Made by a program: the position numbers and the translations under genes
DNA from: Pseudofabraea citricarpa
Lineage: Eukaryota > Ascomycota > Leotiomycetes > Helotiales > Dermateaceae
Direction: 5' to 3'
Length of the DNA: 64,000 bases
Assembly: GCA_029641185.1 (NCBI GenBank)
Contig: JAPWGK010000022.1
Span: 186,001-250,000, forward strand
Shown here: piece by piece, positions 22,027 to 51,426 of the stretch
Layout: every line of letters starts with the position of its first letter
Position numbering within the stretch: position 1 is the stretch's first letter
The notes under the pieces: generated by a model
Told to the model about the DNA's origin: nothing
Database searches by the model: none
The model's input: the letters and a program-made list of their open reading frames with translations, nothing else

Positions 22027-24126
22027 TTATAATCTCGCTTTCACTGAAGTGATCTTCAGCCAGCTTTGAGTATCCAGTGGTTTGTAAGTCTCCCCATCTA
22101 ACCAATACAGCTTATCATTATCTACATTCTGCTCCGGATTCCATGACCTTTTCTTGAGAACTTCTTTCGAATGCTTGAAGGACGCATTGACATCGATTCT
22201 ATATTCGTGTCAGTGTGATCTAGAAAATCAGAAAGACAAACTTACTCCTTTGTAAGACGCACAAGACGAGGTAGGGCATAGTTGGGAAGGCCTCGTGCCT
22301 TGCAGAACTTGAAAAGCTCCGAGACGAATTTGCTTTCGGCTTCAGGGATATCCAATGCTAAAGTAACACCAGCAGCTCCCATTTGGCCGTCATATCTTCA
22401 TTTATCAGTTAAGCAAATCAATTTAGATTTTATAGCTGACTTACCCGTCAAGTTTCACACCGTACACGCTCACGTCACTCACGTTTTCCATCTCCGAGAT
22501 ATAAGCACGTACTTCTCCAGCACTGATATTTTCGCCTTTCCATCGAAAAGTATCACCAGTTCGGTCATGGAAGCGTACCCAGCCATTGGAGTCCTGAACC
22601 AATAGATCGCCCGACCTCTGAAAAAGGTCTCCTTTCTGAAATACATCCCGTGCAAGCTTTTTGTTTGTAGCTTGCGGGTCATTGAGATACTCAGAATAAA
22701 GCTCCATGGATCGAATACGTCCAATAGCTTCGCCAGGTTCATTCAGTGCTGCAGGAACGCAGAACCCGGTCTTTGGATCTCGGTAAAGGTCTTCCTTGGC
22801 GGAATCATATTTCACCAGGAACACATCGGCTTCCAAGGTTCGTCTTAACAGGCCACTGAATCCGACCTTTCCGACACTTTCAGGTCCGCTCTTGAAGTTG
22901 TCAAATTTTGCAATTCCCTCGGTGGATCGATATACTTCGCGGATTTCTGGTATGTTGAAGCGTTGCTGAAACTTCTCCCAGATGTCTTTCTGTAGGCCAT
23001 TGCCATTGGCCACGATACAAGAATGAGCTTTGTCATATGGAGAGACTTCTGCTGCAACCAGGTATCGGCATAGTTCACCAACATATTGCATTCTTGTCGC
23101 CCGGCTTTCTACCAGCTCCCTTGAAAATCTGGAGGCAGAGAACTTCTTAGCGATGCAAAATGTACCTGATGTTCCAACTGAGTAACAAAGACCGTTCAAA
23201 AGTGCAGTAGCATGAAACAGCGGAAGACACGAGTATGTTCTGAGAGGCAAATATCTCTTTGCGTTTTCTACATCGATCGACAATGGTGTCGATGTGTAGC
23301 AGAACAGGAAGTTCTTGATGGATACGGCTTTGGGTTTACCTGTCGTTCCTGAGGTGTAAACCAATGCTGCAATATCCTTTATGCTCCTCTTCGGTCGTGG
23401 CGGTGTTCCTGATAATGTGAGAAGCGAGGCTTGAGTTATCTCTTCAATCGACGGGTCTGCTGGTGTGTATGACCCAAGATTGAGCGACAATACTTTACTG
23501 CTAACATCTACAGCAAATTCGGCGAGATCTGGTGTTGCCAGAACTAGTGATGCACTAGCAATTGTAATACAATGTTTCAACGTATCGGCTAAGGAGATCA
23601 ATTAGCTCAAAAACGCTTCAAAATAACTCCCCATGAAATATATGCTTACTTCTTAACGAGGCGTTGATTAACGCAGGAATTGCCCCAAGGCGAGAAAGAG
23701 CATAGATGGAAAAGAACATCTCTGGCGAGTTTGTCATGTAGATTCCAACGAAATCACCCGCTCTTACACCTCTAGAGTAAAGGAAGCGAGCAAGACGATT
23801 TACCTCTAGGCTCCAATTAGTTTGTATCGAATTACATGACAAGAGGACATACCATCCTTAGCTTCGGCATAAGTCCATGTAATACCCTCAAACCAAAGAG
23901 CTTCGGCATTCTGATCTGCGAGTTCCAACATTCGATATATTGTCGCTTCATTGCCTAGTTGCTGAATTCTCGCCCCCAGCCTCTTGACAACAGCTCGATC
24001 TTGCATCAACTGCTTGATATCTGTGCTAAGAGCCCATCGTGAATTGAGGTATGTGCCAACTCCGATAGCAGCTGTCGTCGATAGAGCTGCCCCAGACAAC
24101 TTCTTCTTGTCCTTAACGATATCCAT
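22027..24126 (-). CDS. FATP/Fat1-type acyl-CoA synthetase with PTS1
   Basis: ATP-dependent CoA ligase of the adenylate-forming family, closest in pattern to FATP/very-long-chain acyl-CoA synthetases. Residues 15-35 are hydrophobic (possible membrane anchor). The AMP-binding motif YTSGTTGKPK, the YRSTEG motif and the FATP block RSGDLLVQD...GDTFRWKGENIS are intact, so it should be active. Five exons are joined by four short introns near 23850, 23625, 22440-22390 and 22250-22200. The last exon ends ...ITSVKARL, and ARL is an accepted type 1 peroxisomal signal. It shares a bidirectional promoter (two CCCCAC sites) with the thiolase gene, which implies activation and beta-oxidation of a carboxylic acid, perhaps an aromatic C3 acid. 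The exact acid is inferred, not shown. Confidence 0.93.
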
Positions 24127-24305
24127 GGCTGCAGAATTCTCAATGTAACCGTAAGTGAAGAACAGAATAAATATCTCAAAAGGAGGTAAATAGATAGCCC
24201 CAATCTGCTATAGCTCTCGCAAACTCTATCTCCTTGATCAAACCTACCAAACTTGACAGCCGTGTCAGCTCGGTCGGCCGCGGGGTATTCCCACCTATCT
24301 CGAGA

Positions 24306-24327
24306 CCCCACACAGCCATCGCCCCAC
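24306..24327. promoter_or_regulatory. Paired CCCCAC elements in the synthetase/thiolase bidirectional promoter
   Basis: Two CCCCAC hexamers at 24306-24311 and 24322-24327, 180-200 nt from the synthetase start and 210-235 nt from the thiolase start. They sit within the only 414 nt separating the two divergent genes; a GCGGGG variant is about 25 nt further left. Confidence 0.6.
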
Positions 24328-24540
24328 CTCGCTTGTACTAAACAAGCCGTTGTACGAAATACGCCGAGCTCACTTGCCGACAACTGCCGGTTGTTCACAA
24401 ATCCAACCCGCGGTGCCTCGGAGACTCATGATTAGAATGAAGGCTTTTGGAACTGCACTGTTGATTTCAAGACTTTTATACAGACCTAGACCGACTTTTC
24501 ATTTCGTACCTAACATAGATCTCAAGTAACTCTGTTGATA

Positions 24541-26048
24541 ATGTCTACCTCTCAAGCACGTTTGCAATCCCTTGCCGGGCAATTGACGCCAGCTACGAGT
24601 AAGAAAAATGCTGTGTTTAATAAGAACGACGATGATGTGGTAAGAATCTAAGATCACATGAGATATAGATCGAAGTGCTAACCACCAACAGGTCATCACT
24701 CTCGCCTTGAGAACACCACTTACAAAAGCGCGAAAGGGATATTTAAAAGACACCAAATTAGATGAACTATTGTTACCTGTCCTCACTGTAAATAAACCAG
24801 GTCCAAAAAAGTGTTCAAAAAGCTAACCAGAGCAGGCAATTAGAGAGAAGTCCAATTTAAATCCCGCTCTTGTTGAAGAGATTGTGTTGGGAAATGTCTT
24901 GCAGCCCAGTTCTACATTCGTTATCAGAACCGCTGCAATCGCAGCTGGGTTCCCCGCAACCACCGCAGCATCGACAGTCAGCAGATGGTGTTCGTCTGGC
25001 TTACTGGCTGTGCAGAGCATAGCAAACCAGATTTCCGCTGGAGGCATCGACATCGGAATTGCCATTGGTGCTGAGAGCATGAGCACTAACCCCGACACGG
25101 GCGCGCCGGAGTTGAGCGAGAAGATCCTCAGCAACAAGGTTGCGAATGAAGCGACCCAACTTATGGGATGGACGTCTGAGAACGTTGCGGGAGATTTCGG
25201 TATCACGCGAGAAGCTCAAGATGCATTTGCAGCTAGCTCTCAGCAGAAAGCCGAGAAGTCTCAAAAGGAAGGCTGGCCTGTCGATGAGATCATTCCTATT
25301 ACCACGCAATGGAAGAATCCAGCAACTGGTAAACTGGAGACTGTTGTAGCTGATAGAGATGATGGAGTGCGCTATGGCACAACCAAAGAAGCTTTAGGCA
25401 AGATTAAAGTTGCATTTCCTCAGTGGAAACCAAGCACGACAACGGGTGGTAATGCTTCTCAGATCACTGATGGTGCCGCGGGAATCTTGTTGATGCGTCG
25501 AAGTGTTGCCATTCGTCTTGGGCAACCAATCATTGCTAAGTTTGCTGCATCGACCGTAGCTGGTCTCGAGCCTCGAATCATGGGCATTGGTCCAACAATT
25601 GTGATCCCAAAGCTTCTCAAGCAGACTGGTCTTTCGTTGGAGGATGTTGATATTTTCGAAATCAACGAGGCTTTTGCTTCGATGGTGAGCCTCTCTTCAA
25701 AACCAATGATGGCTTTTGCTGACTGCTTAGGGTGTTTATTGCGTGCAAAAACTTGGCTTGGATCCGGCTAAAGTCAATCCACGTGGTGGAGCTATGTAAG
25801 TGATTCTGTGATATCGTTCACAACCACTACTGATTCCTGCGACAGAGCTTTTGGACATCCTCTGGGATGCACAGGAGCGAGACAAATTGTCACGGCATTA
25901 TCGGAATTGAAAAGACAAAAGAAGAAAGTTGCAATCACGTCAATGTGTGTTGGAACTGTAAGTCACATGCAATACTCAGTCATGAAGCTTCGCATACTAA
26001 CATTAGCAGGGCATGGGAATGGCAGGATTGATTATTTCTGAGCAGTAA
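24541..26048 (+). CDS. Peroxisomal thiolase (acetyl-CoA C-acyltransferase) with PTS2
   Basis: Thiolytic cleavage of 3-oxoacyl-CoA, the last step of beta-oxidation. The N-terminus MSTSQARLQSLAGQL contains RL-x5-QL, a textbook type 2 peroxisomal signal. The nucleophile cysteine sits in SRWCSSGLLAVQ (W replaces the usual Q before C), the catalytic histidine in GHPLGCTGAR and the second cysteine in CVGTGMGMAG, each brought together by splicing. Introns lie near 24640-24690, 24788-24835, 25685-25730, 25797-25845 and 25958-26010. Divergent partner of the acyl-CoA synthetase. It should cleave either a fatty acyl chain or, in the model proposed here, a 3-oxo-3-arylpropanoyl-CoA to aroyl-CoA plus acetyl-CoA. 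ATG choice is fixed by the PTS2. Confidence 0.95.
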
Positions 26049-26336
26049 ATTTGATACTATGTAGAAGAGAGGGGACATAAATTGTATTATTGAGCCAGAT
26101 AACCATTAATAATGCGGGTGGAGTGAATAGATTGAGAATAAAAATTGTTGTTTTATCAAGTTGCACTCTTGGCGTCCATAGACAAGAACATGCATAACAC
26201 GTACTGAAAAATAATGATGTATGTAACTTTGTCCCACCAGCAACTGGACAAGTACCATCCGAGGGGCCTCCGTACGAGAAAACTCTAAGGAAAGCGCCGA
26301 AATCTCCACTGGAGCTCCATCACAGCTCCATTTATG

Positions 26337-26358
26337 CCCCACCGGCTCGTGACCCCAC
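26337..26358. promoter_or_regulatory. Paired CCCCAC elements upstream of the salicylate-hydroxylase-type gene
   Basis: CCCCAC at 26337-26342 and again at 26353-26358, 16 nt apart from start to start (the same spacing as the pair at 24306/24322), 85-105 nt upstream of the ATG at 26443. Confidence 0.6.
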
Positions 26359-26442
26359 GCAGGCAGCTCTACACAACTTCACGTTTAAGATAAAAGCCGC
26401 CGAAAGTTTTAGCGACAGTAATAAACCATCATAACTTCGAAC

Positions 26443-27967
26443 ATGGCAGCACAAGCAAAACTCCCTCTAGAAATTATCATTATCGGGTATGAGAATGTCT
26501 ACTATCTCATATATTGTGAAGTGACTAACGAGAAAAAAGGGCCGGTATCGGCGGAGTTGCAGCAGCAGTTGCTCTCTGCAGACGTGGTCACAATGTTGTT
26601 CTCTTAGAAGCTGCTCCGCAAATCCTAGCTATTGGAGCTGGTATTCAGGTAGCTCCAAACATGCTCCGGCTTCTTGAAAGTACTTATTCCTTTTACGGTT
26701 GCTTTTCAAATCTGACAGGAAGTAGGGTGGGGTATGGGTGATGAATTGCAAGCCAAAGGAATCAGGCTCGAGGAAGTGCACATTCGAAGATGGCAAGACG
26801 GTTCGATCCTTGGAAAGACGCCAATGAATATGAATTACGGAGATCAGATCGTGATCCACCGCGCAGATTTACACGATGCCCTTCTCTCCAAAGCCAAGGA
26901 ATTCAAGAACTTTCAACTCAGGGTCAATGCAACCGTGATAGATGTTGATTTTGAAGATGCATCGGTGGTCCTACAAAGCGGAGAGAAAGTCTCTGGCGAT
27001 GTGATACTTGCAGCGGATGGGATCAAATCAATCGTTCGGAAAAAGGTCACGGGTGATATGGAAGATACTGCAGTGCCGACAGGAGATGCAGTTTACCGAC
27101 TCATGTTGACGCGGGAACAAATGATTCATGATCCGGATCTGAGACCTTTTATTGAGGAGAGAAAAGCGATTAGATGGCTTGGGCCTGGAGGACATACCGT
27201 CGCGTACCCAGTGCAGAACCATCAGCTTTACAATATCGCCATGGCACATCCGGATCGAGGTGGTGTGGATGAGTCTTGGACGACAGTTGGATCCAAGGAT
27301 AAATTACTGAAGGAGTATGAGAATTGGGATCCAAAGCTGTATAAGATGCTTTCCTTGGTTCCTACTCAGGAAGTGCTGGAGTGGAAGCTATGCACGCATG
27401 CACCCTTGTCAACTTGGATCAAAGGGAAATGTGCTTTACTTGGAGATGCATGCCATCCAATGTTGTAAGTGGACATGAGACGTTACAAATTCAGAACAAA
27501 CCCGAAAATAGTAAAAGGCGGAAACGATGCTAATGATTCTACAGACCTTATGTGGCACAAGGAGCAGCCCAAGCAGTTGAAGATGCATCAGCAATTGGAG
27601 TCATCCTCTCTCACGTAACCCATCGATCTGAAATCCCAAATGCTCTCAAGACATACGAGAGTGCACGTAAAGACAGAGGCGAGACTATACAAGCTTTAGG
27701 ACCGCTCAACCGCGAGGCGTTGCATCTTCCTGATGGACCAAAGCAGAGATCGCGAGACGCAGATTTCCAGAAATTATCAACTGCGGGGAATAATCCAGAT
27801 CGATGGGGTGATAGAAAGACGCAAGAATTCCTCTGGGCATGGGATGCAGAGTTGGAGACCGAGAAATTAATGAAAGGTAGGTAATCTCTGAACCCCATGT
27901 TTCCCGGAGCAGATCACTGATTATCCATCCCACGATAGGGAATGATCAATTTGTAGCTCGGCTCTGA
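26443..27967 (+). CDS. FAD monooxygenase, salicylate/4-hydroxybenzoate 1-hydroxylase type
   Basis: Flavin monooxygenase of the salicylate-hydroxylase branch, whose members often decarboxylate while hydroxylating (salicylate to catechol, 4-hydroxybenzoate to hydroxyquinol-pathway hydroquinone, 6-hydroxynicotinate to dihydroxypyridine). The first intron splits the dinucleotide motif IIIIGAGIGGVAAA; the DG motif is ILAADGIKS; the third exon end and fourth exon join to give GDACHPMLPYVAQGAAQAVEDA. The acceptor of intron 2 must be the AAG just after CAG near 26720 to keep frame. At the 3' end, reading through stops after MKGR at 27884; removing a 62-nt intron (27877-27938) gives KGNDQFVARL and stop at 27967, ending in the PTS1 tripeptide ARL. 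I annotate the spliced end. Its place next to ring-cleavage genes suits production of a hydroquinone. Confidence 0.9.
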
Positions 27968-28578: not shown

Positions 28579-28690
28579 CTTTTGTTGTATCGATCCGGTG
28601 CTTCCATTCTTCCACCGTCCATTGCTGTCATCGTCGAAACTATCACTATCCTCTTTTGTCAACGACCCCGATACTTCTGCTTCCTGGGAC

Positions 28691-31600
28691 ATGTCGCTCG
28701 CCATCGATCCTAGCTTTTCCACAATTGAAGAAGATCAGATAGTCTTGCAACTCGCCGTAGCTGACGAACCAAAAAGAAGTGGCCCACAGAAGAAGAAGTG
28801 TAAATATTGCGAAAGGCGCTTTGTGAAATCCGAACATCTTAAGCGTCATCAGCGAACTCGTAAGTCGTCGTTCCAGGAAGATAACAGGGCTAAGAATTCA
28901 AAGATACGGGGGAAAGACCATACTCATGTATATATTGTGAAAAATCGTATTCAAGAAGGTATGATCTTACTTCTAGCAGTCCAGGAGTAGTAATTGAGTG
29001 ATGATAGCGATGTGCTCACTCGCCATCTCAAACACCATACACAGGGTCCAAATGCAATACCATTGGAGACCTTGCAACAAAATGGTGATTCGGGACTACA
29101 GAGTGAAGTTCCAGTGAACACAGACTTGAATGCGGAACCATCAAAAAAGCAAATGTCAAGAAGAACTTCATCAGTAACATCACGAACTCCTCATCCAGCA
29201 ATTGAAATTCCTCGGACGCCTAATTTGGATGATCTTGCGACAATCTCAATGCAGCAAGATCACAGGAGAGCAAGTATGAATATTGTCCGGCCAAATATCG
29301 GTCTGGAAGAACACCTCAGTCCATCGCGACAGCGACGAAGGATAAGTGAAAGTCAAGCGCCAAGTATCCAGCGTTGCGATGAGATGGACATTACTCCATT
29401 TCCTGGAAATCAGATCCATTCCTGGGATGGAGATCATCAAGTATACGAAGACCAGTATCCACAGGATTGTTTACCACAGAGTGTGAGAACACCAGCGTCC
29501 GTGAGGGCGCCCAACTTTGAACATCAATACGCTTCTATACAACAATTGGCAACCCCACACCATCTTACAGAACAGCCATCCCAGGATCAAGAAATGGACG
29601 CATGGATATCTCAATTTTCTAACAATTTTCAACTTCCGTATAACAATGAAGTTTTCTTGGGAGACCAGAACGGAATGCAGCTTGATATCAACTATCGAGA
29701 ACCTTATGCTGCCCCAGAAAAAGAAAATCTAGAAGAGAATGAGGTTCCAAATGAGAGATTCCGAAGGGTAGAAAAATGCTGGCCCACAAGATGGATCAAA
29801 ATAAAGAAATTGATGCCTACACTCTGGGATGATGTCGCATCAGCTCAAACTCCAAATTTATTTTCGGTTCGACAATCAATTAGAAATTCATCTAAACAAA
29901 ATACTCGAAGAGGCTTAGACGATGATTGCAAGGCGAGATTAGAGACGGCATTTCAAGCCAGCCTGCTTGAGCAATCTCCAAGGCCTAGCAGCTTCAGCGA
30001 AATCAGTGCCACGTCACCAGCAGGAGGTATGTCCGAGAACGGAAGTACTAGCTCTGTATCACAAGCATCTGAATTCCCTTCTTCGGAAATTCTGGACATT
30101 AGTTTGGATCTTTACTTCCGACAATTCCATTCTCTTACGCCTTTTATACATGTTCCTACGTTTGACCCTCATCTGGTGCCCGATTCTCTGCTTTTTTCTA
30201 TGTGTCTCATCGGCCTCAATATCTTAGATACGAAGAGATCTCTTGCCTTTGTGCGGAGACTGTTTCCTGTGAGTTTTTAGACGGTTAGATTTTACTTGTA
30301 AACTGACATTCATTAGACGCTGTTGCATAAAATATCTAGCGAAGTTTCATCGATACGTTTTTCTAGAGGCTCTGTAGGAGATATGTTAGCTGCCTTTGCT
30401 GCAGCTTACCTAACTTTAAGCCTGGGAGAAATGCTTGGAGTAAGTATTGAAGAAATTTAAATTTGGTTTTTACTTACAATGAATTAGACGCAGTATGATC
30501 CGGGACAATGCCAATCGCTGTACATGACAACAATTCTTGTAAGTTAAATTGCAGCTTTTTTGATTTCACTAACACCTTTAGATGATGCAACAGCATGGAT
30601 TGTTTAAACAAAGTGACTCTCCAAGGTTTGATTTAAATACACTTGCTCAAGGTGAGCAACTTGAAAGTCAATGGAAAAGCTGGGCGAGAATTGAGTCTTC
30701 GAAAAGGTAAGTATCCAAGTTCTTAGAAATCCTAAAGCTAACTCTGTCAGACTCATTTCATGCATGATGATGGTGGACACTTGGTTCTCAGGGAGTTTAC
30801 ATGCAGCACCACTAATCTTCACGGATGACTTGAGGCTTCATTTGCCCTGTCCGAGTAATATATTCAATGCCAAGAGCCCGGAATGCTGGGCAGATATCGT
30901 CAGAATGGATCAATCAAGTTTACTCGCACTGTCGCATCATGATGCAAGCCTTCCGGATCTGCAGAGCCCCTCTGATCAATTCACCATGCATGCTATACTG
31001 TCAGCAGTTCGGCTGCGCATCTCCGACGCATATCACCGGTTGCAGTCAGAGGATTCTTCTGTACCTTGGAAGGTATACAATCTGGACAGCAATGCTCGAG
31101 TTTGTGTTCCTCTCGCTCTCCAGATATGCGAGAAGTACGACAATAACCTCCGGAGCACTAAAACAAATTGTCTAATGCTCTGGCACAATATTTCCATGAT
31201 GCTCACGAGCGACTTGCGCATTTTTGAGCTCGCAGCTGGCGCTGAGGGTGCAGATCGAGCTAGAAAAGCCTTGAAAGATATTACGGCGTGGTCAGCTACA
31301 CCGTCAGCAAGACGAGCGTGCGTACATGCAGCACAGACTCTCAAGGTTGCCACGAATCGACGAGTCTCGGATGGGATTATGTTTCACTTCTCAACAGTCC
31401 TTTTCAGTGCAGCATTAGTATTGGGACTCTACGTCTACAAGGTGGCAGAATGTACTGATAACTTTCCGCCTGTGGAGCTACTTGGGGAAGTGGACTGGAA
31501 GAGAGTTGGTGACGTGGGGCTTGTTGACGACGTGTCGAACGATAACGACCCGATCATCCGCTTTATCGAACATGGGGGGAAGTTCAAACTTGATGACGTG

Positions 31601-31741
31601 GTGTATGAGTTTGGGTACTCGTCAGCGCGTCGCATTTTGTTAGATTATGCGAGTGTTCTAGAGGAGGTAGCGAAGTGGAAAACGGGGCCGTACTCCCATA
31701 TTTTGAGGATCATGAGTGATGCTCTTGTGGATGTGGGATAG
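28691..31741 (+). CDS. C2H2 zinc-finger / fungal_trans pathway regulator
   Basis: Likely nuclear transcription factor of about 920 aa that controls the surrounding genes. Exons 1-3 (28691-28859, 28914-28958, 29008 on) assemble two classical fingers: CKYCERRF-VKSEHLKRHQRTH and CIYCEKSY-SRSDVLTRHLKHH, joined by the TGERPY linker. The third exon must start at 29008 because only that acceptor restores the 12-residue spacing of finger 2. The helices KSEHLKR and RSDVLTR are close to those of yeast Msn2/Msn4. A long Q/S/P-rich region follows, then a fungal_trans (PF04082-like) middle homology region from about residue 420 (LDLYFRQFHSLTPFIHVPTF) through several introns between 30268 and 30750 to the final exon. 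The start is the first ATG in frame before the fingers. Centrally placed in the cluster. Confidence 0.9.
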
Positions 31742-31946: not shown

Positions 31947-33699
31947 TTAAACAGATTCTACTTGGTGAAATGTCGGCATAGCAGCCTCGCCCTTTGAAAC
32001 CCCGTTGGTGCCTGCTCCGTTTTGTAGAAATAGACTCTTGAGTTTGGCGTCGTCGAGAAGTACTTCTCGCATCTCTCTCGCATCTTTCCGGTTCTTCTTG
32101 ACAATCTCTAATAATTTCTTAGACAAGGGATCGGCAGTGAAATGGTCAGGTAGTCTATCCCAGACTTTCGGATCCGTTCCATTGAGGTGAACGCATTTGC
32201 AGCCTTTGCGAGCATACTCGGTCCACAGGAGAGTCCTTGAGGTCTCGACCATAATAGTCATTTGATCTAATGTTTCGTCAGCGATCTATCGGATTTGAAT
32301 TCAGGTAAATGGGACTTACTCTCAAGAATTCTTCTGGGTTGGTTCTCTTGAATCTGCATCTCGGTGATATACCCATCATCAAACCCTCCATGTGGAGTAT
32401 GTCCACCCTCGAAACTGCCTCCTCCCGGTTGGAAATCATCCGAGCGACCGAGTCCGTTGCCATACAAGCAAGCAAGAAACTCAGAAGCGGAGTTTCGATG
32501 GAAATATGGAAGACGGAACGTATTAGAAGCAACGTCCCAGCGGGGACCAAACCACAAAAAGTCGAGAAGTGGAACGTTCGGATCATGAGATTTGGCAGTT
32601 AGAACAGTGTTGACCGATGGGTCGGTATGATCTATGCTGGTACTGTTCTGCGAAGCAAATTTGGTAAGGTCGTACTAATTTCATTAGTACAGTTCTTCAA
32701 TTGAAAGTGAATGACAAATACCTTGTATGGAAGGACATTTCCATGCCAGGCTAACACGTCGAATGGGCTGTGGTCCTGAGAAAGACCATAGTACTTCCCA
32801 TTAGTCTTGTACACGACCTGGAATGGCACATGCAAATCATCATCAATATGAGCGATGGGATATAAGAAGTCTCGAGGATTTGCAAGTCCATGGCCTCCCA
32901 GAGGTCCTAGATCAGGTAACTCGTAATGGCTTCCCCAGACTTCAGTGACATAACCCCTGGCAGCATCTGAGCCGGTACCCAGATTGATGGAGAATCTCAC
33001 TCCTCGTGGGATGACGATGATCTCGCCGGGCTGGACGTATAACATTCCCATTTCGGATTGCACGTCCAGAGTGCCGAGTTGTGGACAGAGAAGGAAATCA
33101 CCATCCGCGTTGCAGAAGGCTCGCTGATTCATGTCTTTGTTGAACATGTAGACATATAAAGCCATTCCCTGACGCAAGTTGGGATCTCCGCTTCCTCCCA
33201 GCGTGTGTAAGCCGTCAACAAAATCTGTCGGTATTTCTGGGAGTGGAAATGGGGTCCATTCAGCCTGTTCTGGAAGAATCTCTACTGCATTGTTGCTGGA
33301 GAGAAAACAATTTTGAATATTGGCCGTGGATTCTACAGATTTATACCCCTCTGTAAAATTTGTTAGTACAGAACAATCTTCGATGTAATGTATAAACTTA
33401 CTATGGGCAGCAGATGGTCGAGCTCGGTACATATAAGTACTAAAATTGACATGTCTTGGAGCTGCAAAAGCAGAGTAGGTGATACCTTCGGTGTAAAGCT
33501 TGAATCGATTCTCCTGAGGATTATTCTGAGCAATTGGAAGAGTTCCAGGAATTAATTCTGACTGATGACGGCCTCCCCAACCCGGTTGATATTCATATGG
33601 ATCATTGGCACGAGTTGGAGATTTGCTCTGCAGATCTGTATAATGGAAGACCTTCTGAATATCCTCGACAGGCACGCGTGGTTTGATCTTGGCCTCCAT
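31947..33699 (-). CDS. Homogentisate 1,2-dioxygenase family ring-cleaving dioxygenase (paralogue, probable hydroquinone-type substrate)
   Basis: Fe(II) cupin that cleaves para-diol aromatic rings. The iron-site segment YFHRNSASEF (His and Glu ligands) and TPHGG (second His) are intact, as is DFLWFGPRW. Introns: about 33403-33355 (branch TACTAAC), 32722-32677 and a 53-nt one near 32318-32266 whose acceptor must be CATTAG to keep frame. At about 530 aa it is longer than typical HGDs (about 440-460) because of a charged C-terminal tail after the last core helix (IVKKNRKDAREMREV...). Residues after TPHG (GFDDGY) differ from the usual PDADCF, in the area near the substrate. No maleylacetoacetate isomerase or fumarylacetoacetase gene is nearby; instead maleylacetate reductase is, which suggests a hydroquinone without the acetate arm. 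Confidence 0.92.
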
Positions 33700-41956: not shown

Positions 41957-43517
41957 TCAAAGAGCCGCTTTAACAGCCGGCTTTGGTGCTACGTCCTCTT
42001 TATACATGTGAATGCTCTGAACGTTCATATATGTCAACATGCCATATCTCCCTCCTTCACCACCCACACCACTTTGCTTGAAACCTTGGAAATATGCTTG
42101 CGACAGAGGCTTCTCAAAACTGTTGATCCAGACAGTTCCAGATTCAATTTGCTTTGCAATCCTTTTTGCTCTGTCAAGATCCACCGACCAGACAGCCCCA
42201 CCAAGTCCAGTTTCTGTGTCATTTACCTTGCCGATTACTTCTTCCTCGGTACTCCAAGGCATTATCGGTACAATTGGCCCTAGAATCATTAGCCTAGGAA
42301 GCTTTAAATCAGATATAACTTACCAAATTGCTCCTCGGTCACAATTCTTGACGTATGAGGTGGGTTCTCTACAATCGCAGGCTGGATCGTGAAGCCTTTC
42401 TCTGACGACAAAGATGAGGATCCTCCCAAAGCGAACTTGTGGTTGTTGGCTAGGGAATCTTCCAACAATGACTTCACCACCTTATGTTGCATGTGGTTCT
42501 GCACAGGACCGAGGACAATCCCCTCCTCCGAGGTCGGGCCCACTTTCCACGATTTGACAATCCGAGTCATGGCCTCAAGGAATTGTTGATATATATCCTG
42601 GTGCACATAAAGTCTTTTGCTAGCAACGCAAAGCTGCCCAGAGTTGAAGAATGAACCCACAGCAACTTGACCAGCGACTGTCATGATATCGACATCAGGA
42701 CAGATTATCGAAGCGCTATTGCCGCCAAGCTCAAGAGTGACATGCTTGAGGGTCTTTGATGCCGACATCATAACGCGCCGTCCAGTTGCTGTAGAACCCG
42801 TGAAGCTGATCATAGCAATGTCGGGGTGCTCAGTGATCAAAGGTCCGAGCTTATCATCACCATTCAGTGCTTGAAGTACTCCTGGGGGCAAGAACTTCTG
42901 CGCCATCTCGACAAATTTTAAAACGGCATAAGGCGTGAAGGGAGAAGGCTTCACAATTATACAATTGCCCGTGACCAACGCAGAACTGATCTTTCCCATG
43001 GAAAGAATAAGCGGGAAATTCCATGGGGATATGGCACCCACGATTCCTCGTGGCACAAAACGTTGTGTCAAAAGAATGGTATCGTCATCTTGAATAACTT
43101 CCTCGAGGGGTTCTTCCTCGTCAGCTAAATAGTGGTTAGGACAGCATTTCTTAAGTGGTAGTGAGACTAACAGTGATATTTGAGAGATACCGCAGCATTA
43201 TTTACCTCCAAGGCTGCGGTATGTGCCGGCTTTCCAGCTTCTTGCATAATTATCTTTACCATCTCTGCCTGGTGGGAAAGAAGCTCTTCTCGAAGCTGTC
43301 CCAAGATCGTTTGCCTTTCTTTCCATGGTGTTTTCGACCATGATTTAAAGGCTGTTTGCGCTGCTTTGACGGCATCGTTTAGGTTATCAGGTGTCGCTAC
43401 AGGTACCTTCCAGAGGAGGGACTCGTCAGAAGGGTTGACTGCTTGAGTTTCAATCAAACTGTCGCGATTTTCGCCTGCAATAGTATTGTGGAACTCGGTG
43501 AAGCTGATTGACGACAT
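41957..43517 (-). CDS. NAD(P)-dependent aldehyde dehydrogenase
   Basis: Oxidises an aldehyde to the acid; in the proposed route 4-hydroxymuconic semialdehyde to maleylacetate. The domain is complete: ISPWNFPL (cofactor-binding start), FTGSTATGRRVM, catalytic Glu in ELGGNSASI, catalytic Cys in FFNSGQLCVASKR, EEQFGPIVPIMPW (joined by splicing) and the tail GGEGGRYGMLTYMNVQSIHM. The start is MSSISFTEFHN at 43517, preferred over the in-frame codon 24 nt upstream. Two short introns (near 43168-43125 and 42325-42275). It ends ...PAVKAAL, not a canonical PTS1. The closest pattern is the salicylaldehyde/vanillin/semialdehyde dehydrogenase group. It shares a divergent promoter with the class III CoA-transferase gene. 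Confidence 0.93.
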
Positions 43518-43922: not shown

Positions 43923-45522
43923 ATGAATTTGCGAATACCTTCAAGATTTTTACGGAAACAGCTCCTCACAAGACGTTGTTACTCTGCTGCACCGACTCCC
44001 CCGGCTACCAAAACACTTCCTTTATCCGGTTTGAGAATTGTTGATCTTACACGAGTACTTGCTGGTGTGAGTTTGCAAGCCTTCAAATGCTATATAGACT
44101 GACTGGATAGCCATACTGCACGCAGATTTTAGGGGATCTAGGGTATGTTGTAATGTTTCAAAGGCGAGTCAAAGCTAATAAAGTTTTATTAGGGCCGAAG
44201 TTATCAAGGTTGAACATCCTACTCGAGGCGATGACACAAGATCATGGGGACCACCATACGCAAAATTCCTTGACGATAGAGGAGGCCCGGGAGAGAGTGC
44301 TTATTACTTATCAGTAAGCCAGCTCCAGCAGTTCGTCGTTTATCGGTAAGCCAATTTGTGATCCACTAACACCGACAGGTAAATCGGAACAAGAAATCCA
44401 TCGGAATTTCATTCAAAGAAGAGAAAGGTGTAGAACTCATCCGCCGATTAACTGCCAGTGCCGACATTTTGGTTGAGAATTATCTCCCAAATTCTCTGAA
44501 GAAATATGGCTTGGACTTTGCATCTTTGAGTACGGACAACCCGAAACTGATTTATGCGAGTATCACGGGGTATGGTCAAACTGGACCATACAGTGATAGA
44601 GCTGGATATGATGTGATGGTAGAAGCGTATGTAAATCAATTATTTTCTGAATATTTCTAACGATTATAGTGAAATGGGTTTAATGCACATCACCGGAACT
44701 CGTGATGGTCCACCTGTTAAAGTTGGTTGTGCTGTCACAGACTTGACCACTGGATTATATGCTGCAAATAGTATAATGGCAGCACTTCTTGGTAGAGCTA
44801 TGACAGGCACTGGCCAACACCTGGATGTTGCTTTGAGTGACTGTCAAGTGGCTACTCTTTCCAACATGGCAGAATCTGTGCTCGTTTCTGGAAAGAGGGA
44901 CACAGGAAGGTGGGGAACAGCTCATCGTGAGTATCCTTCATGTATTTGTCAACTCGGCTAAACAGTGTAGCATCCGTTGTGCCATACCGAGCCTTCAAAA
45001 CTGCCGATGGAGACTTTCTTGTCGGTGGTGGGAATGATCGGTTGTTTGGTATACTTTGTGAAGGATTAGGAAAGCCGGAATGGGCGCAGGATGAGCGATT
45101 TGTCACTAACGATAAGAGAGTTGCAAATCGGGATGTTTTGGAAACTTGGATTGAAGATATCACCCAAACGAAGACAACCCAGGAATGGCTGGATAGGTTC
45201 AATGGCACCGGATTACCATATGCGAAGGTGAATGATTTACTAGACACTGTAAATCATGAACATGGTAAGTAACGGATAAATCTTTCTATCTGACACTGCT
45301 GACACCATAGTCCTCGCTCGAAACATGATCAAAGAAGTTGACCATCCAGCATGTGGGCCACTAAAGCTGATAAACACCCCTGTCAAGTACTCATACTCAA
45401 CACCCGGTATTCGGTCACCCCCGCCAACGCTTGGTCAGCATACGGACATGATCTTAAGAGATATTTTGAACTTAGATGAATTGGAAATACAGTCGCTGAG
45501 AAATGATGGGGTTGTGGGGTAG
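43923..45522 (+). CDS. Class III (CaiB/SUGCT-type) CoA-transferase, mitochondrial
   Basis: Formyl-CoA-transferase/CaiB family, most like the mitochondrial succinyl-CoA:dicarboxylate (SUGCT) group. The N-terminus [20 protein letters not shown] is Arg-rich without acids, a clear mitochondrial presequence. Splicing requires a 32-nt micro-exon at 44111-44142 that supplies [10 protein letters not shown] and restores the family motif [25 protein letters not shown]. The catalytic Asp lies in [15 protein letters not shown], and [17 protein letters not shown] is intact. Further introns near 44310-44380, 44627-44670, 44925-44965 and 45265-45310. It could load CoA onto a dicarboxylate intermediate, or move CoA from an acyl-CoA product to a new substrate. 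The acceptor is unknown. Confidence 0.9.
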
Positions 45523-45941: not shown

Positions 45942-46032
45942 CTTGGATCGCTCTTTGGATTTGCATAAAGACAATGTGAGAAGTGTTCAGATTAATCGGA
46001 TGATTAGCCAGTTTTATTCATTCTATCTAATC

Positions 46033-47971
46033 ATGGCAGAAGCATCAGAGAAAATCACTCCGGAGTCCATTGGACAAAGTCATCTAGACAGTCCTATGTT
46101 CAATGACACCCCGAATGATGACCCTCATGTCACCGCTTTCGAAAACAATGAACCTTCCAAAGTTTCAAGGTCGACCCTGCTATCGGTCTTTGTAAGGATA
46201 TCCTCGATCTCAAAAAGACATCGCTAATGTGAACAGTTCCTCGGGTTAGCATTCACGGCTCCAGTCAGTTGTGGATTCATTTTGGTTTCTGGAATTCAAA
46301 CACAAATTGGTACTCGACTTGGGGATACGACAAATCTTGTATGGATTGCTGGTAGTTGGTCTGTTGCTTCATCGGTCTCCTTTTCTATGGCTGGAAGTTT
46401 AAGCGACATTTTTGGTCGACGTTGGGTTGTAATCTCAGGAAACATAATCACTATAATTGGAGCTGTGAGTTTAGTTGACAGCAGCAACGGACATAACTAA
46501 TTGCAGCAGATTATTGGTGCGACGGCCGACACAGTGAAAATAATAGTCGCCGGTTCTACTTTTATTGGCTTCGGTGCTGGAATTATCTTCGTCGCCTATG
46601 CAGGAATACCCGAAATGCTGCCAAATAAATACCGGTAAGTTCGATGCACTTTTATTTTTACAACGGGCAAGGCTAAACAGTGGCAGTGGTATTGGACTTG
46701 GATGGACGGAACTATGCATCACTATTCCATGGTCAACATTCTCCGTCCTCATCGGCAACCAACTTGTCGAAAAAGCTACATGGAGGTGGTGTTACTACGT
46801 CGCATTGATTTACGCCGTAATTTCGACCATCGGTATTGTAGCATTCTACTACCCACCATCTCGTCCTAGAAATGACTACGACAAGACACGCTGGCAAGAA
46901 TTCAAAGAGTTGGACTTCATTGGCAATTTCCTCTATGCTACGGGCCTCCCAGTAATGCTTATTGGGTTTACGTGGGCTGGAACGAGCGGTCATCCGTGGG
47001 ATGGTGCTTCAGTCATCGCTCCTATCATCATCGGTGTCGCTCTATTCGGTGCATGCTTTGCTTACGACTTCACAATTGCCAAGAACCCCCTTTTTCCGCT
47101 TCCACTGTTCGCTAAAATCCGTGAATTCACAATCCTTCTGGTTGTCGTCTTCGTCTCTGGAATGATCTTCACTGGAATGACTGCACTACTTCCTCAGGCT
47201 ACCCTCTGGATATTCACAAGCGATCCTACAGACATCGGCGTAATTGCCATTCCTAATGGTCTGGGCTCATTGATTGGAGGCTGGCTCATCCCGTCCTTCA
47301 TGCACAAGATAAAACATCTTCGTTGGCAAGTTATCATTGCTCTAATTGTTCAGACCCTGGCAAATGCCTTGTATGTCACCGTAATTCCAGACAGCAAAGC
47401 TGGTTGGATGGTGTTGCAATTTTTTGGACAAGGTTGCTTCACATACTTGACCACACTCTGCTACGTTATCAGTTCACTTCACGTTCCTCATAAGGACCTC
47501 GGTCTTGCATCTGGTCTAATCGGAACCTTCAGAAGTGGTGGAGGTAGTATTGGAAACGCGATTCTTTCGACTATCCTCACTGGAATAATCAATAACCGTC
47601 TTGGAAACAAGATTGTTGCAGCGGCTCTTAATCTCGGATTCAACCCTGAAGGATTGGAGGCCCTGGTACCAGCAGTGATTCAAAATGCGCTTGGAGTCCC
47701 GGGAGCTTTTGCGTCAGTTCCCGGCATTACTCCTGCTGTGGAGGAAGCTACGGCACACGCCCTCAAGGAAGCATATGCGTTTGCGTTCAAGAGGGTATTC
47801 TATGCAACGATTCCTTTTGGCGTCATTGCAACTGTTTGCGCGTGGTTTATTAAGGATCCGTCACAGTATCTCACGAACCATGTTTCTGTGCATATGGAGA
47901 AGGAGGTTTTGGGAGGAGCGAAAGAACAGCATGTGGAGAATGCCACATCGGAGGAAACAATCAACAGGTAG
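46033..47971 (+). CDS. MFS transporter of the Tri12/DHA2-like 14-helix family
   Basis: Plasma-membrane major facilitator, with pattern of the fungal Tri12 (trichothecene-efflux-type) family, which also includes uptake and efflux systems for other compounds. I start at MAEASEKITPES (46033), downstream of an in-frame ATG at 45934, because the GTGGGG element at 45936 would otherwise be coding. Helix-loop motif SLSDIFGRRWVVISG and WRWCYYVALIYAVIS are typical. Introns near 46190-46237, 46465-46507 and 46635-46680. The C-terminal tail is charged (HMEKEVLGGAKEQHVEN). In this context it likely imports the cluster's aromatic substrate or exports a toxic quinone intermediate; the sequence cannot tell which. 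Confidence 0.92.
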
Positions 47972-48485
47972 TCGGTACTGGTTGCAAAATTGAAGAATAA
48001 GCTGTCATGTTAATGCACAAGGATTTGTACTTTTTTCTTTCAGGTGTTCGGTCAAATGCAATATCTAGCATCTTCCAAATAGAAACCCAGCCATCATATC
48101 AAGAAATATAAATACAGTCGCTTGCTTGATTCAGACATAGTGACACGATCATCTTGCCCAATTTCAAAAAACCATGGTTTTCTATTTGCTGGGACTATAT
48201 TACGGAACTCCTATACCTCCATGCCTAGTTGAGCCAGTCTCAATAAGCGAGGGATACTTATGTCGTAGCATCCTCTCCATAATAACATCATTAAAGCATT
48301 ACCTTAACTAAATCAACTCATATCTCTTACGAGTATACTCATCTTGTGACACCAACACTATTGGAACAGTTTATAGTCATATTGAATTACTGGTGCTATT
48401 AATCCATTACCCTTGCATTTGTCTCTAATTTACAGGTCCGATGCAACGATTATAAGAGGAAGGAGTCTAAACTTTCTCATCTAAT
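47972..48485. other. Convergent spacer
   Basis: 514 nt between the 3' ends of the transporter and multifunctional-enzyme genes. AT-rich, presumably 3' UTRs and terminators; no gene and no GTGGGG element seen. Confidence 0.5.
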
Positions 48486-51426
48486 CTACAATAACTCCAC
48501 GGCTGCTGCAACAATAACCGGCTTGTTCGTCTCAACCACTGTAGTCTGGAATATGACCTTCTTTCCTTCCTTCCACATATCTGTTCTCAGTGTCTGACCT
48601 GGAATTACCACTCCAGAGAACCTGACCTTGATCTTGTTGTACCCACCATAGGTTTCAAAGATATGCTTGCCACTAATGCCCATAGTGCAAAGCCCGTGAA
48701 GAATTGGAGTTGGAAAGCCGCCAACTTTGCTGAAATCTGGATCAATATGAAGAGGGTTGAGGTCCCCATTCAAACGATACAGAGCAGCTTGATCGGTACG
48801 AGTCTGTTCAGTTACGGATGAATCGGGTTTTCTACCAGGCGGCTTGTTTGCGGCAGTTGCAGCTCCTCGGTCATTTGCTTTCTTATTACCACCAAATCCG
48901 CCAGATCCTCGGATAAAGACCGTTGTCTCATTGTAGAAAATCACTTTTCCGGAATTGTCGGTAGTCGTAAATGCCTGTACAACTATGGCTGCGTTTCCCT
49001 TGTCCACAACCTCAACAAGCTTGGTATTCGTTGTCAATGGACCGCGTGTTGGGATAGGAGCTCGGATTTCTAGATACTGCTCGCCGTGTAAGAGCATCTT
49101 GGGCGAAAAATTCTTCACGATATCTTCCATCTTGTAGGGTGCGGGGGCGTTGAAGAATGGAACAACACCAAATGTGGGAAGTGATTGGAATTCCTTGTGT
49201 CCTTCAAACACAAGCGGCAATGCTGTCGGCTTTACACCTACTGATAAGGCGTACAGACTAATATCCTTCTCGGAATACGGGAATACATATCCGGTTGATT
49301 GTGCAGACTTGGCCTGCTCAATTCGCTCAAGAACACTGCTATTCTGCATGTAATTAGCAAAAGGACTACTTGAATTGAGGGTACATACCTCTGTTGGGAG
49401 CAAGCCATATTTTCTCAGCGAATCGGCTGGACTTTGTGGATTGTCGCCATTAGCGAAATTGTTTACGTCTTGCCATTTTGAGTGGAGAGCTTCTGGAGTA
49501 AAGGCGTTTGAGGAATCGAACTTGATGCCAGCTGATCGTTGCCATCTGGTCTCTCCGAACCATCCACTACCAACTTCGTATAATCCACCAGTAGGATTTT
49601 TTGGAACAGAATCACTGCAAAGAGCCACCAAGAGAGGTGCGACTTGCTCGGGTTTTAATGCCTGCACGACTTCTTCGGGTAAAATTGTTCTAGTCATTGC
49701 TGTTCCAGCATTGGGGGCTATGGTGTTGACGTAGATGTTGTGCTGTAATCCTTCACGAGCAAGGGCGCGGGAAAGTCCGAGAATTCCTGCTTTCTGATAT
49801 TCTTAGTAATTTCGACAGAAAATTGGTGTAAATCCCTTACCGCTGATGCATAATTTGTTTGACCAAAGCTGCCATATATGCCACTGACACTGGTGGTATT
49901 GACAACGCGACCATACTTTTGTTTAATGAAGTATGGCCAGGCTGCTTTGATGGTTTGATATGTTCCATTTAGATGCACACCCAAGACCAAGTTCCACATA
50001 TCAGGCGTCATGTTCAGGAAAGCTTTGTCTCTTAGGATACCAGCATTATTGACAATGATATCGATTCGGCCGAAAGCTTTAATAGCTGCTTCGACGTTTT
50101 TCTTGCCCTCCTCTGCCGAAGATTTGACGCCCGCGGCTTTGCCACCAGCTGCTCTGATTTCACTGACAACGGTATCTGGATCTGCAATATCATTTACAAC
50201 AACAGATGCGCCATGTTTAGCGAATTGTAAGGCATAGGCTCTTCCAAGTCTGTCCGAGGTTAGCTGGAATCATCGAATATTATCTTAGAACCTACCCTGC
50301 GCCTGCACCCGTAATCAAAGCTACTCTTCCTGAAAGATCAACTTTATCGCCCAATTCGTTATCTGGCAACTGAAGCCCGGTTTTCAAAAGTTCCATGAAA
50401 TCAGCCGGGCCAGCAGGAAATTGAGATGACGAGAAATCGCCAACGCTGTCCCATTTCTTGAGCAAGGCGCCTGCCGTTAATGTATCATTCGCTTTTAACA
50501 GTAATCCACTTGATCGCTGCCATCTAAGCTTTGAGATGTTTCCCGCACCGACTTCAAAAATTCCACCATTCTCCGTTGATGATTCGTGAGCAAGTAATGC
50601 AACTACTGGGGTCACCAGCTTGGTTTGCTCTTGATTTGCAACTAGGTTTATTAGCAAGAAATAAAGAATTACCCGTGATTGGCATACCAAGTGGTGCGAT
50701 GACATTTGCCAGTATGTTATTCTTCAGACCTTCTCTTGCAAGAGTCTCCGTAAATCCTACCAAAGCAAGTTTTGATGCTGTCTGGTCAGCTTGTGCGTCT
50801 CCCTTGGTTTATTGAGTACATACCGGAGTAATTTGCTTGCCCAGCATTTCCGTAAAGGCCAGCTATTGAAGTAGTATTTATGATTCTTCCATATTTCTGT
50901 TTCCTGAAATGAGGCCAAGCAGCGTGGGAGCACTGCTTGTGTTAGCAAATCCTTGCAACTGGCAGATATCCTTACTTTATAGCTTCCCGTCAAGTTGACA
51001 TCCAAAACAGCCTTCCAGTCTTCATCTGACAAGTTTGCGAAATCTGCGTCTCGTAAAAGAGTGGCATTGTTGATCAGGATGTGGATAGCACCAAAAGCTT
51101 GCAAAGCAGTTGCGATGATTTTCTCCCCGTCTAGTACGCTGTCATAAGACGCTACGGCCTTTCCGCCGTTTAAGTTGATTTTGTCAACAATCTTGTCAAT
51201 TCCCTACATAATTAGAATCTAGCTCAGCTAAAATTGATTCAATCTCACCTGCTTGTTTCCTTGGGCGTTTGCGACAACACTGGCGCCTCTGGAAGCAAAA
51301 AAATATGCATATGATTCACCGAGTCTATGAACAGTTAGCGAAAGTTTGGTTGAACTTCTAGCGCTTTTACCCTCCAGCTGCACCTGTTATAACTACGGTC
51401 TTGCCATTGAATTGAAGTTCTGCCAT
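48486..51426 (-). CDS. Fox2-type multifunctional beta-oxidation protein (two dehydrogenase domains plus hydratase 2)
   Basis: Performs hydration of trans-2-enoyl-CoA and oxidation of the 3-hydroxyacyl-CoA. Two tandem SDR domains are seen, each with a TGxxxGxG-type motif (VITGAAGG from 51410; [15 protein letters not shown] from 50310) and a YxxxK-region (NYS-ASK and NYASA-K, both interrupted by introns). A MaoC/hot-dog hydratase-2 domain follows, with the signature [28 protein letters not shown] near 48780-48700. At least eight short introns; total about 870 aa, usual for fungal Fox2 without the animal SCP2 domain. It ends ...IVAAAVELL, without the usual PTS1 tripeptide. Together with the synthetase and PTS2 thiolase it completes a beta-oxidation set in the cluster. 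It is probably a cluster-specific paralogue. Confidence 0.93.

What the first reader, a model, noticed from the sequence alone, without database searches (positions are those of the whole stretch)
22027..51426. A 13-gene cluster that could encode a complete side-chain-shortening plus hydroquinone ring-cleavage pathway
Seen: contiguous genes for acyl-CoA synthetase, Fox2-type hydratase/dehydrogenase, PTS2 thiolase, salicylate-hydroxylase-type monooxygenase, HGD-family dioxygenase, aldehyde dehydrogenase, maleylacetate reductase, 3-oxoacid CoA-transferase, second thiolase, transporter and regulator. Known: bacterial 4-hydroxyacetophenone and 4-nitrophenol routes use hydroquinone dioxygenase, 4-hydroxymuconic semialdehyde dehydrogenase and maleylacetate reductase; 4-hydroxybenzoate 1-hydroxylase of yeasts gives hydroquinone. 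Inference: the same logic is assembled here with an HGD paralogue as the ring opener, fed by beta-oxidation of a phenylpropanoid-type acid (such as p-coumarate or a relative) and ending in succinyl-CoA plus acetyl-CoA. Each gene family has a distinct place in the scheme except the PcaB-type enzyme, the class III transferase and the P450. I know of no description of such an intact ascomycete cluster but could not search.
Basis: partly seen in the sequence, partly recalled or inferred. Interest (0 to 1): 0.92.

Follow-up and report, generated by a model that had tools for sequence, protein, structure and literature searches.

The report
Fungal gene cluster for hydroquinone breakdown
Thirteen neighbouring, apparently co-regulated genes of a fungus look like a complete route for burning a plant phenylpropanoid acid through a hydroquinone ring, with a little-known branch of the homogentisate dioxygenase family as the ring opener; it is a new arrangement of mostly known steps and has not been tested in the laboratory.

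Summary
The 13 genes are there, at the stated coordinates (22027-51426); no P450 was found inside. For it: (1) the monooxygenase is closest to solved decarboxylating vanillate / 4-hydroxybenzoate 1-hydroxylases, not salicylate hydroxylases; (2) the dioxygenase (HGDL) lies in a well-supported clade apart from HmgA and from the MhdA-like (methoxyhydroquinone) clade, keeping the iron ligands but with Gly for Tyr350 in 59 of 61; (3) the synthetase/PTS2-thiolase pair duplicates a second divergent hcsA-katA-like pair; (4) the maleylacetate reductase is the only close one found in 44 Mb; (5) CCCCAC is enriched in 9 of 10 cluster promoters (16 versus 2.5 expected) and recurs, paired, before an MhdA-like gene and its neighbouring esterase on another contig. 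Against: the aldehyde dehydrogenase, the gene that argues for plain hydroquinone, shares HGDL's contig in only 3 of 17 strain-matched fungi; the Fox2 lacks a peroxisomal signal. A. niger already has the methoxyhydroquinone analogue, so: new variant of a known kind. Plain hydroquinone as substrate is likely, unproven.

The parts
22027..24126 (-). Acyl-CoA synthetase, FAT1/HcsA type, 631 aa, C-terminus ARL (PTS1-like)
   Evidence: model; Pfam AMP-binding; paralogue at C40, best segment 53% identical
24541..26048 (+). 3-ketoacyl-CoA thiolase, KatA-like, 419 aa, N-terminal PTS2-like RLQSLAGQL
   Evidence: model; Pfam; paralogue at C40, best segment 63%
24306..24327 (+). paired CCCCAC sites in the ACS/thiolase divergent promoter
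26337..26358 (+). paired CCCCAC sites in the monooxygenase promoter
26443..27967 (+). Group A flavin monooxygenase of the decarboxylating vanillate/4-hydroxybenzoate 1-hydroxylase type, 421 aa (ends ARL if the last intron is real, otherwise GR)
   Evidence: model; PDB comparison; NCBIfam; Pfam
28691..31741 (+). Regulator: two C2H2 fingers plus Fungal_trans domain, 920 aa
   Evidence: models; Pfam (one finger above the zf-C2H2 cut-off; the second read by eye)
31947..33699 (-). HGDL: HGD-family ring-cleavage dioxygenase of a separate clade, 533 aa
   Evidence: Pfam
34604..36134 (-). PcaB/adenylosuccinate-lyase-family lyase, 451 or 492 aa depending on start; basic, presequence-like N-terminus in the longer form
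   Evidence: Pfam
36553..37903 (-). Second thiolase, candidate 3-oxoadipyl-CoA thiolase, 405 aa
   Evidence: Pfam
38127..39556 (+). Maleylacetate reductase, 383 aa; only close copy found in the genome
39960..41744 (-). 3-oxoacid CoA-transferase (A and B halves fused), 503 aa, presequence-like N-terminus
   Evidence: Pfam; NCBIfam TIGR02428 and TIGR02429 above cut-off
41957..43517 (-). Aldehyde dehydrogenase, 489 aa; proposed 4-hydroxymuconic semialdehyde dehydrogenase (inferred)
   Evidence: Pfam
43923..45522 (+). Class III CoA-transferase, SUGCT-like, 435 aa, presequence-like N-terminus
   Evidence: Pfam
46033..47971 (+). MFS transporter (TRI12/MFS_1), 600 aa
   Evidence: Pfam
48486..51426 (-). 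Fox2-type multifunctional hydratase/dehydrogenase, 858 aa, ends VELL (no PTS1)
   Evidence: Pfam; paralogue with TKL end at C10

Best explanation
The interval is one co-regulated catabolic cluster of a fungus whose nearest listed relative is a helotialean. A hydroxyphenylpropenoic acid (p-coumarate is the simplest fit) is activated by ACS, shortened by FOX2 and the PTS2 thiolase to a hydroxybenzoate, oxidatively decarboxylated by the monooxygenase to a 1,4-hydroquinone, and cleaved by HGDL. For plain hydroquinone the product is 4-hydroxymuconic semialdehyde, which ALDH oxidises to maleylacetate; MAR reduces it to 3-oxoadipate; SCOT and the second thiolase give succinyl-CoA and acetyl-CoA. A cluster regulator acts through CCCCAC sites that also lie before a methoxyhydroquinone-type locus (MhdA-like gene plus esterase) on another contig, so this cluster would also supply the only MAR to that route. 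Shown by calls: gene content, families, clade placement, motif, paralogues. Inferred: every substrate and the order of steps, the regulator-motif link, targeting. PCAB and CAIB have no assigned step; my guess is a mitochondrial side step on an unsaturated dicarboxylate.
For: Monooxygenase: best solved relatives are a decarboxylative vanillate 1-hydroxylase (8x38, 336 bits), 8r2t (327) and an entry named 4-hydroxybenzoate decarboxylase (8gsm, 275); salicylate-named entries 147 or less. HGDL: HgmA_N and HgmA_C domains; of 61 aligned clade sequences His292, Glu341 and His371 stand in 61, His335 in 60 (one gap), with Gly for Tyr350 in 59, Arg for Lys353 in 61, Glu for His365 in 57; clade support 100/100. 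The own MhdA-like paralogue is elsewhere (C23), beside a carboxylesterase, in a 14-row clade (100/99) with three Aspergillus proteins whose tagged mass of 55.4-55.7 kDa fits the 55.5 kDa given for A. niger MhdA (PMC8336404 passages). Second divergent synthetase/thiolase pair at C40; hcsA and katA are neighbours in 37 of 50 Eurotiomycetes (PMC8140964 passages). MAR matches 9ph0 'MAR1' at 317 bits; the next genome hits are 30-37% identical by segment. CCCCAC 16 times versus 2.5 expected, in 9 of 10 promoters; 0 of 300 random sets as extreme. Paired sites: of 50 listed genome places outside two repeat arrays, 2 lie in this cluster and 3 at the C23 locus.
Against: The nearest solved monooxygenase is a vanillate, not a 4-hydroxybenzoate, enzyme, which favours methoxyhydroquinone. 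ALDH shares HGDL's contig in only 3 of 17 strain-matched fungi (by eye; the listed ALDH may not be the orthologue). ALDH reaches no NCBIfam equivalog cut-off among the 25 of 43 families shown, and its PDB neighbours are mixed, with a gamma-hydroxymuconic semialdehyde dehydrogenase first in 17th place. FOX2 lacks PTS1 while the other copy ends TKL. The second thiolase is far below the PcaF cut-off. No thioesterase among the 13 genes. PCAB and CAIB have no step. Counted with coding sequence, the cluster is not denser in CCCCAC than some other stretches. No expression or enzyme data.
Confidence: 0.5

Rival explanations
1. HGDL opens methoxyhydroquinone or dimethoxyhydroquinone (from ferulate/vanillate or sinapate/syringate) and is a further, specialised isoenzyme of the known guaiacyl/syringyl route; ALDH serves an aldehyde upstream (such as a hydroxybenzaldehyde) and not the ring-cleavage product.
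For: Closest solved monooxygenase is a vanillate 1-hydroxylase. The cluster shares its promoter motif with the MhdA-like/esterase locus. Gly for Tyr350 would if anything enlarge the pocket (inferred). ALDH is mostly not on HGDL's contig in other fungi.
Against: No esterase in the cluster, whereas the A. niger route uses OmeA (PMC8336404, passages); an MhdA-like gene with an esterase neighbour exists separately in this genome.
Confidence: 0.27
2. The pathway is for another ring: a substituted hydroquinone whose cleavage product needs the PcaB-like lyase and the class III CoA-transferase, so that HGDL-PCAB-CAIB is the core and the maleylacetate scheme is only part of it.
Against: Monooxygenase, MAR, SCOT and thiolase already give a closed route without PCAB or CAIB; I know of no reaction that fits.
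Confidence: 0.15
3. A detoxification or secondary-metabolite cluster that happens to hold catabolic families.
For: TRI12-type transporter; this genome has four HGD-family genes.
Against: No polyketide synthase, peptide synthetase or prenyltransferase among the 13 genes; a CoA-transferase and thiolase end points to central metabolism; shared motif with another catabolic-looking locus.
Confidence: 0.05

Closest known systems
Vanillate/methoxyhydroquinone pathway of Aspergillus niger (VhyA, MhdA, OmeA; PMC8336404, passages read)
   Same: Decarboxylating flavin hydroxylase gives a hydroquinone; an HGD-family paralogue opens it; a maleylacetate-reductase-type step (there a candidate only) and 3-oxoadipate follow.
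   Different: There mhdA neighbours omeA and an MFS gene; here HGDL is in another clade, no esterase, ALDH instead, and the side-chain module is in the same cluster.
Peroxisomal CoA-dependent hydroxycinnamate beta-oxidation of A. niger (HcsA, FoxA, KatA; PMC8140964, passages read)
   Same: FAT1-related synthetase beside a PTS2 thiolase, Fox2-type enzyme.
   Different: In A. niger hcsA and katA are neighbours but foxA is elsewhere (gene numbers in the passages) and FoxA has PTS1 (AKL); here FOX2 is in the cluster without PTS1. The paper reports the hcsA-katA neighbourhood for Eurotiomycetes only.
Bacterial hydroquinone route of 4-nitrophenol/4-hydroxyacetophenone degraders (recalled)
   Same: Hydroquinone ring cleavage, 4-hydroxymuconic semialdehyde dehydrogenase, maleylacetate reductase.
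   Different: Bacterial ring openers are of another family (recalled); here a single HGD-family protein.
Methoxy-/dimethoxyhydroquinone dioxygenase of Phanerochaete chrysosporium (title seen in the FAMeDB reference list; paper not held)
   Same: Fungal dioxygenase for substituted hydroquinones.
   Different: Basidiomycete; sequence relation to HGDL not tested.

Membership tests
Homogentisate 1,2-dioxygenase (HmgA, TIGR01015) | Score above the curated equivalog cut-off of 510.75 bits | tested here: not met
   HGDL 453.3 bits. Controls: C31 675.5 and MhdA-like C23 546.8 of the same genome pass, C9 459.3 fails; P0118 553.5 passes, so the model does not separate MhdA-like from HmgA.
Homogentisate dioxygenase family (fold level) | Iron ligands His335, Glu341, His371 (human numbering, recalled as ligands) | tested here: met
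   Present in HGDL; in the 61-sequence clade 60 (one gap), 61 and 61.
MhdA (methoxyhydroquinone 1,2-dioxygenase) | Falls in the MhdA clade; esterase neighbour | tested here: not met
   HGDL in a separate 25-row clade, 100/100; the C23 paralogue is the one that falls with MhdA-sized Aspergillus proteins. The MhdA sequence itself was not at hand, so the MhdA clade is named by size and esterase neighbour.
Decarboxylating 4-hydroxybenzoate/vanillate 1-hydroxylase | Closest to solved members, not to salicylate hydroxylases | tested here: met
   336, 327 and 275 bits against 147 or less for salicylate-named entries. Activity not testable here.
Salicylate 1-monooxygenase (TIGR03219) | Above cut-off 446.35 bits | tested here: not met
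   152.5 bits.
CoA-dependent hydroxycinnamate beta-oxidation module (HcsA/KatA/FoxA) | Neighbouring FAT1-type synthetase and PTS2 thiolase | tested here: met
   22027-26048, and a second such pair at C40. Orthology to HcsA/KatA themselves not tested.
CoA-dependent hydroxycinnamate beta-oxidation module (HcsA/KatA/FoxA) | FoxA with PTS1 | tested here: not met
   Cluster FOX2 ends VELL; C10 paralogue ends TKL.
PcaB 3-carboxymuconate cycloisomerase (TIGR02426) | Above cut-off 355.75 bits | tested here: not met
   351.2 bits, narrowly below; NF006554 458.7 of 595.
3-oxoacid CoA-transferase family | TIGR02428 and TIGR02429 above cut-off | tested here: met
   269.6 over 243.55 and 215 over 128.5.
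3-oxoadipyl-CoA thiolase PcaF (TIGR02430) | Above cut-off 597 bits | tested here: not met
   281.4 bits; PMC13094099 says PcaF lacks orthology to the characterised Ascomycota thiolases (passages).
Maleylacetate reductase (fungal) | Closest solved protein is a maleylacetate reductase | tested here: met
   9ph0, named MAR1 (taken as maleylacetate reductase from the name), 317 bits; entries named maleylacetate reductase about 106 bits.

The most novel reading that the evidence does not exclude
A ninth central ring-opening pathway of fungi: plain hydroquinone is cleaved directly by a further, widespread clade of HGD-family dioxygenases, working with an obligatory PcaB-like lyase (and a SUGCT-like CoA-transferase) that catalyses a step not yet described in aromatic catabolism; in this fungus the whole route from a phenylpropenoic acid to succinyl-CoA is one regulon joined to the methoxyhydroquinone locus.
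Probability: 0.3. Interest if true: 0.8.

Novelty: new variant of a known kind. Interest (0 to 1): 0.6.

Why it matters
A 2026 database paper counts eight central ring-opening intermediates in fungi and hydroquinone is not one of them (PMC13094099, passages). If HGDL opens hydroquinone, that list grows, and about 60 listed ascomycete and metagenome protein entries, most of the named ones called homogentisate dioxygenase or hypothetical, would need another name. The conserved HGDL-PCAB neighbourhood makes the role of a PcaB-like lyase in ascomycetes directly testable. A lignin-monomer route with its own regulator in one 29-kb block could be useful for engineering.

Tried and rejected
Salicylate hydroxylase reading of the monooxygenase: rejected. 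HGDL as the tyrosine-pathway homogentisate enzyme: unlikely, because the C31 copy passes the hmgA cut-off and HGDL fails it. Fumarate/acetoacetate type ending: no fumarylacetoacetase or isomerase among the 13 genes. Bacterial neighbourhoods of PCAB, to find its substrate: of 80 loci fetched, 49 hold a GntR-type and 48 a DctA-type relative of the L036 genes, 19 a FumC; that is 47 of 47 Pseudomonas/Erwinia/Pantoea loci for both GntR and DctA, and of the other 33 only two for GntR and one for DctA (hits anywhere in the fetched stretch; direct adjacency was read only in L036, L043 and L045). It suggests dicarboxylate chemistry there, no substrate. Other fungal genomes are not held, so synteny was read from contig lengths, locus tags and fused models in protein lists. 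The stretch around the PCAB paralogue at C12 gave no second gene model above my score limit. A fragment of one monooxygenase paralogue (C19) was read but not compared further. Literature: searches for a fungal hydroquinone dioxygenase cluster showed none in their listings (with 0 papers, 51, 55, 74, 77); of those listed I read passages only of PMC12366324, PMC8283699, PMC7842363, PMC12388069 and PMC8336404. Two key papers (PMC10832562, PMC10880611) are not held. Structure prediction was not run: it would show the fold but not the substrate.


Full report
What was checked. The window is G000:C15:186001-250000 of a 44-Mb genome in 43 contigs. The nearest listed relative of the dioxygenase is from Phlyctema vagabunda, 92% identical, a Leotiomycete of the Helotiales, Dermateaceae, so the host is probably a helotialean fungus; it was not identified further. 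I built spliced models with a small self-trained gene finder and corrected junctions by eye; the 13 final models have 57 introns, all GT..AG, of 42-80 bases, and one terminal stop each. Pfam agrees with the family of each. No P450 motif was found in the interval; a P450 lies at 1732-3475.

Side-chain module. The synthetase ends ARL and the thiolase has the N-terminal stretch RLQSLAGQL, laid out like the PTS2 of A. niger KatA, RLTSIANQL, in PMC8140964 (passages), where hcsA, foxA and katA are shown by deletion to serve hydroxycinnamate breakdown. The genome holds a second divergent pair at C40:937-942 kb, best segments 53% (synthetase) and 63% (thiolase) identical. The paper found hcsA and katA next to each other in 37 of 50 Eurotiomycetes and not in other clades; the two pairs here are an exception or a parallel case. 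The window FOX2 is a diverged copy: the copy at C10 is 48-69% identical by segment and ends TKL, the window copy ends VELL at the same stretch, and its first dehydrogenase domain is shorter (by eye). This speaks against simple peroxisomal targeting of FOX2; import with a partner would be a guess.

Ring module. The monooxygenase scores 336 bits against a decarboxylative vanillate 1-hydroxylase, 327 against 8r2t, 275 against an entry named 4-hydroxybenzoate decarboxylase and at most 147 against salicylate-named entries. Its best-scoring paralogues in the genome are 38-42% identical. HGDL was placed in a tree of 64 rows: 20 of the 61 clade members, the window protein and four looser relatives (P0065, P0069, P0071, P0079) form a 25-row clade with 100/100 support. 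The C23 paralogue falls in another clade of 14 rows (100/99), beside Aspergillus and Rasamsonia proteins of 487-494 aa (that inner join only 83/90). Their mass with an eight-residue tag is 55.4-56.3 kDa, and 55.5 kDa is given for MhdA-His; the A. niger member of the HGDL clade would be 61.7 kDa (PMC8336404 passages). C23 also has a carboxylesterase next door, as A. niger mhdA has omeA. The rows C31, C9, 9pz4 and P. putida sit on long branches and their places are unsure. In the 61-sequence clade position 350 is Gly in 59, 353 is Arg in 61 and 365 is Glu in 57 (human numbering: Tyr, Lys, His); C23 keeps Tyr350 but shares the other two changes. That these residues touch the homogentisate side chain is recalled, not shown. 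The solved protein 9pz4, named homogentisate 1,2-dioxygenase, also has Gly at 350; what it acts on I could not learn.

Lower module. MAR is the only close maleylacetate reductase found in the genome; the next hits are 30-37% identical by segment. SCOT passes both 3-oxoacid CoA-transferase cut-offs and has a 65% paralogue at C6. The second thiolase is far below the PcaF cut-off; its role in 3-oxoadipyl-CoA cleavage is inferred. PCAB, CAIB and SCOT have basic N-termini that look like mitochondrial presequences (by eye). PCAB and CAIB have 68% paralogues elsewhere. So several cluster genes have a duplicate elsewhere, around a single-copy MAR. The genome has intradiol dioxygenase hits elsewhere (14 matches by exon), none in the window.

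Regulation. In the 10 promoter regions of the cluster CCCCAC (either strand) occurs 16 times against 2.5 expected, in all but the regulator's own. None of 300 random sets of matched intergenic segments gave as strong a six-letter word present in at least 7 of 10 (observed z 8.34, maximum 7.1). Counting coding sequence too, the cluster is not denser in CCCCAC than some other 29-kb stretches, so the signal is in the promoters only. Paired sites 15-19 bases apart occur 109 times in the genome, against 86 for the reversed control, so the pair as such is not much enriched. Of the 100 places listed, 50 lie in two repeat arrays (C4, C41); of the other 50, two are in this cluster and three at C23, two before the MhdA-like gene and one before the esterase. 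The two loci cover about 35 kb of 44 Mb. That the cluster's C2H2 regulator binds the site is inference; its fingers resemble Mig1/CreA fingers, which bind GGGG-type sites (both recalled).

Conservation. Only protein lists could be used, since other fungal genomes are not held. A Didymosphaeria gene model joins HGDL to a CAIB-like protein, a Thermoascus model joins PCAB to a thiolase end, and a Paramyrothecium model joins an ALDH to a thiolase. For ALDH, 3 of 17 strain-matched fungi share the contig length (Phlyctema, Oculimacula with tags 5815 and 5822, Myriangium) and 14 do not (by eye; dropped for differing or unclear isolates: Clonostachys rosea, Fusarium lateritium, Verticillium dahliae, V. 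albo-atrum, Elasticomyces, Boeremia exigua, Paecilomyces variotii, Aureobasidium melanogenum). PCAB-like proteins also occur in fungi for which no HGDL relative is listed by name (such as Aspergillus terreus), though collapse at 90% identity hides members. All three lists are capped at 120 rows. So the firm core is HGDL plus PCAB; the ALDH link looks local.

Reading. The best reading is a hydroxycinnamate-to-3-oxoadipate regulon with a hydroquinone as the ring-opening intermediate. ALDH and the lack of an esterase favour plain hydroquinone; the monooxygenase's nearest solved relative and the shared motif with the MhdA-like locus favour a methoxylated ring, or both rings served by one cluster. 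I put plain hydroquinone only a little ahead. The PcaB-like lyase is the open question: bacterial relatives 56-58% identical in Pseudomonas, Erwinia and Pantoea occur with a GntR-type regulator and a DctA-type symporter in the same stretch (47 of 47; of all 80 loci 49 and 48), and it resembles U. maydis trans-aconitate decarboxylase (408 bits) and, more, a solved protein named only fumarate lyase (3c8t, 542 bits). Dicarboxylate chemistry is likely, the substrate unknown.

Known and new. In print: HGD-family methoxyhydroquinone dioxygenase in A. niger, hydroxycinnamate beta-oxidation, and eight fungal central intermediates without hydroquinone (PMC8336404, PMC8140964, PMC13094099; passages only). 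Hydroquinone is drawn towards hydroxyquinol in the passages seen of PMC12388069 and PMC12366324. I saw no description of this cluster or of the HGDL-PCAB pair in the listings; most subscription papers are outside that library, and most listed papers were not opened.

Noticed in passing
G000 C23:1273995-1278600 (locus L023): MhdA-like dioxygenase gene and a carboxylesterase with six CCCCAC sites in three same-strand pairs before them: looks like the methoxyhydroquinone locus of the same regulon.
   Followed up: partly
G000 C9:904500-913500 (locus L024): A fourth HGD paralogue beside a P450-like gene and a permease-like gene (by eye); His292 is Gln in it and it fails the hmgA cut-off.
   Followed up: partly
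G000 C40:937000-942200 (locus L127): Second divergent synthetase/thiolase pair, hcsA-katA-like, outside the Eurotiomycetes to which the paper read in passages confines it.
   Followed up: partly
window 51890-52890, minus strand: APH/choline-kinase-like phosphotransferase directly beside the cluster; no sign that it belongs.
   Followed up: no
window 1-3475: Another flavin monooxygenase-like gene (runs off the window start) and a P450 next to each other.
   Followed up: no
window 13413-16556, minus strand: Single-exon 1047-aa open frame rich in Ser, Pro and Asp, no family sought.
   Followed up: no
loci L035-L084: In 47 of 47 Pseudomonas/Erwinia/Pantoea loci a PcaB-like lyase 56-58% identical to the fungal one shares the fetched stretch with a GntR-type regulator and a DctA-type symporter; substrate unknown.
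   Followed up: partly
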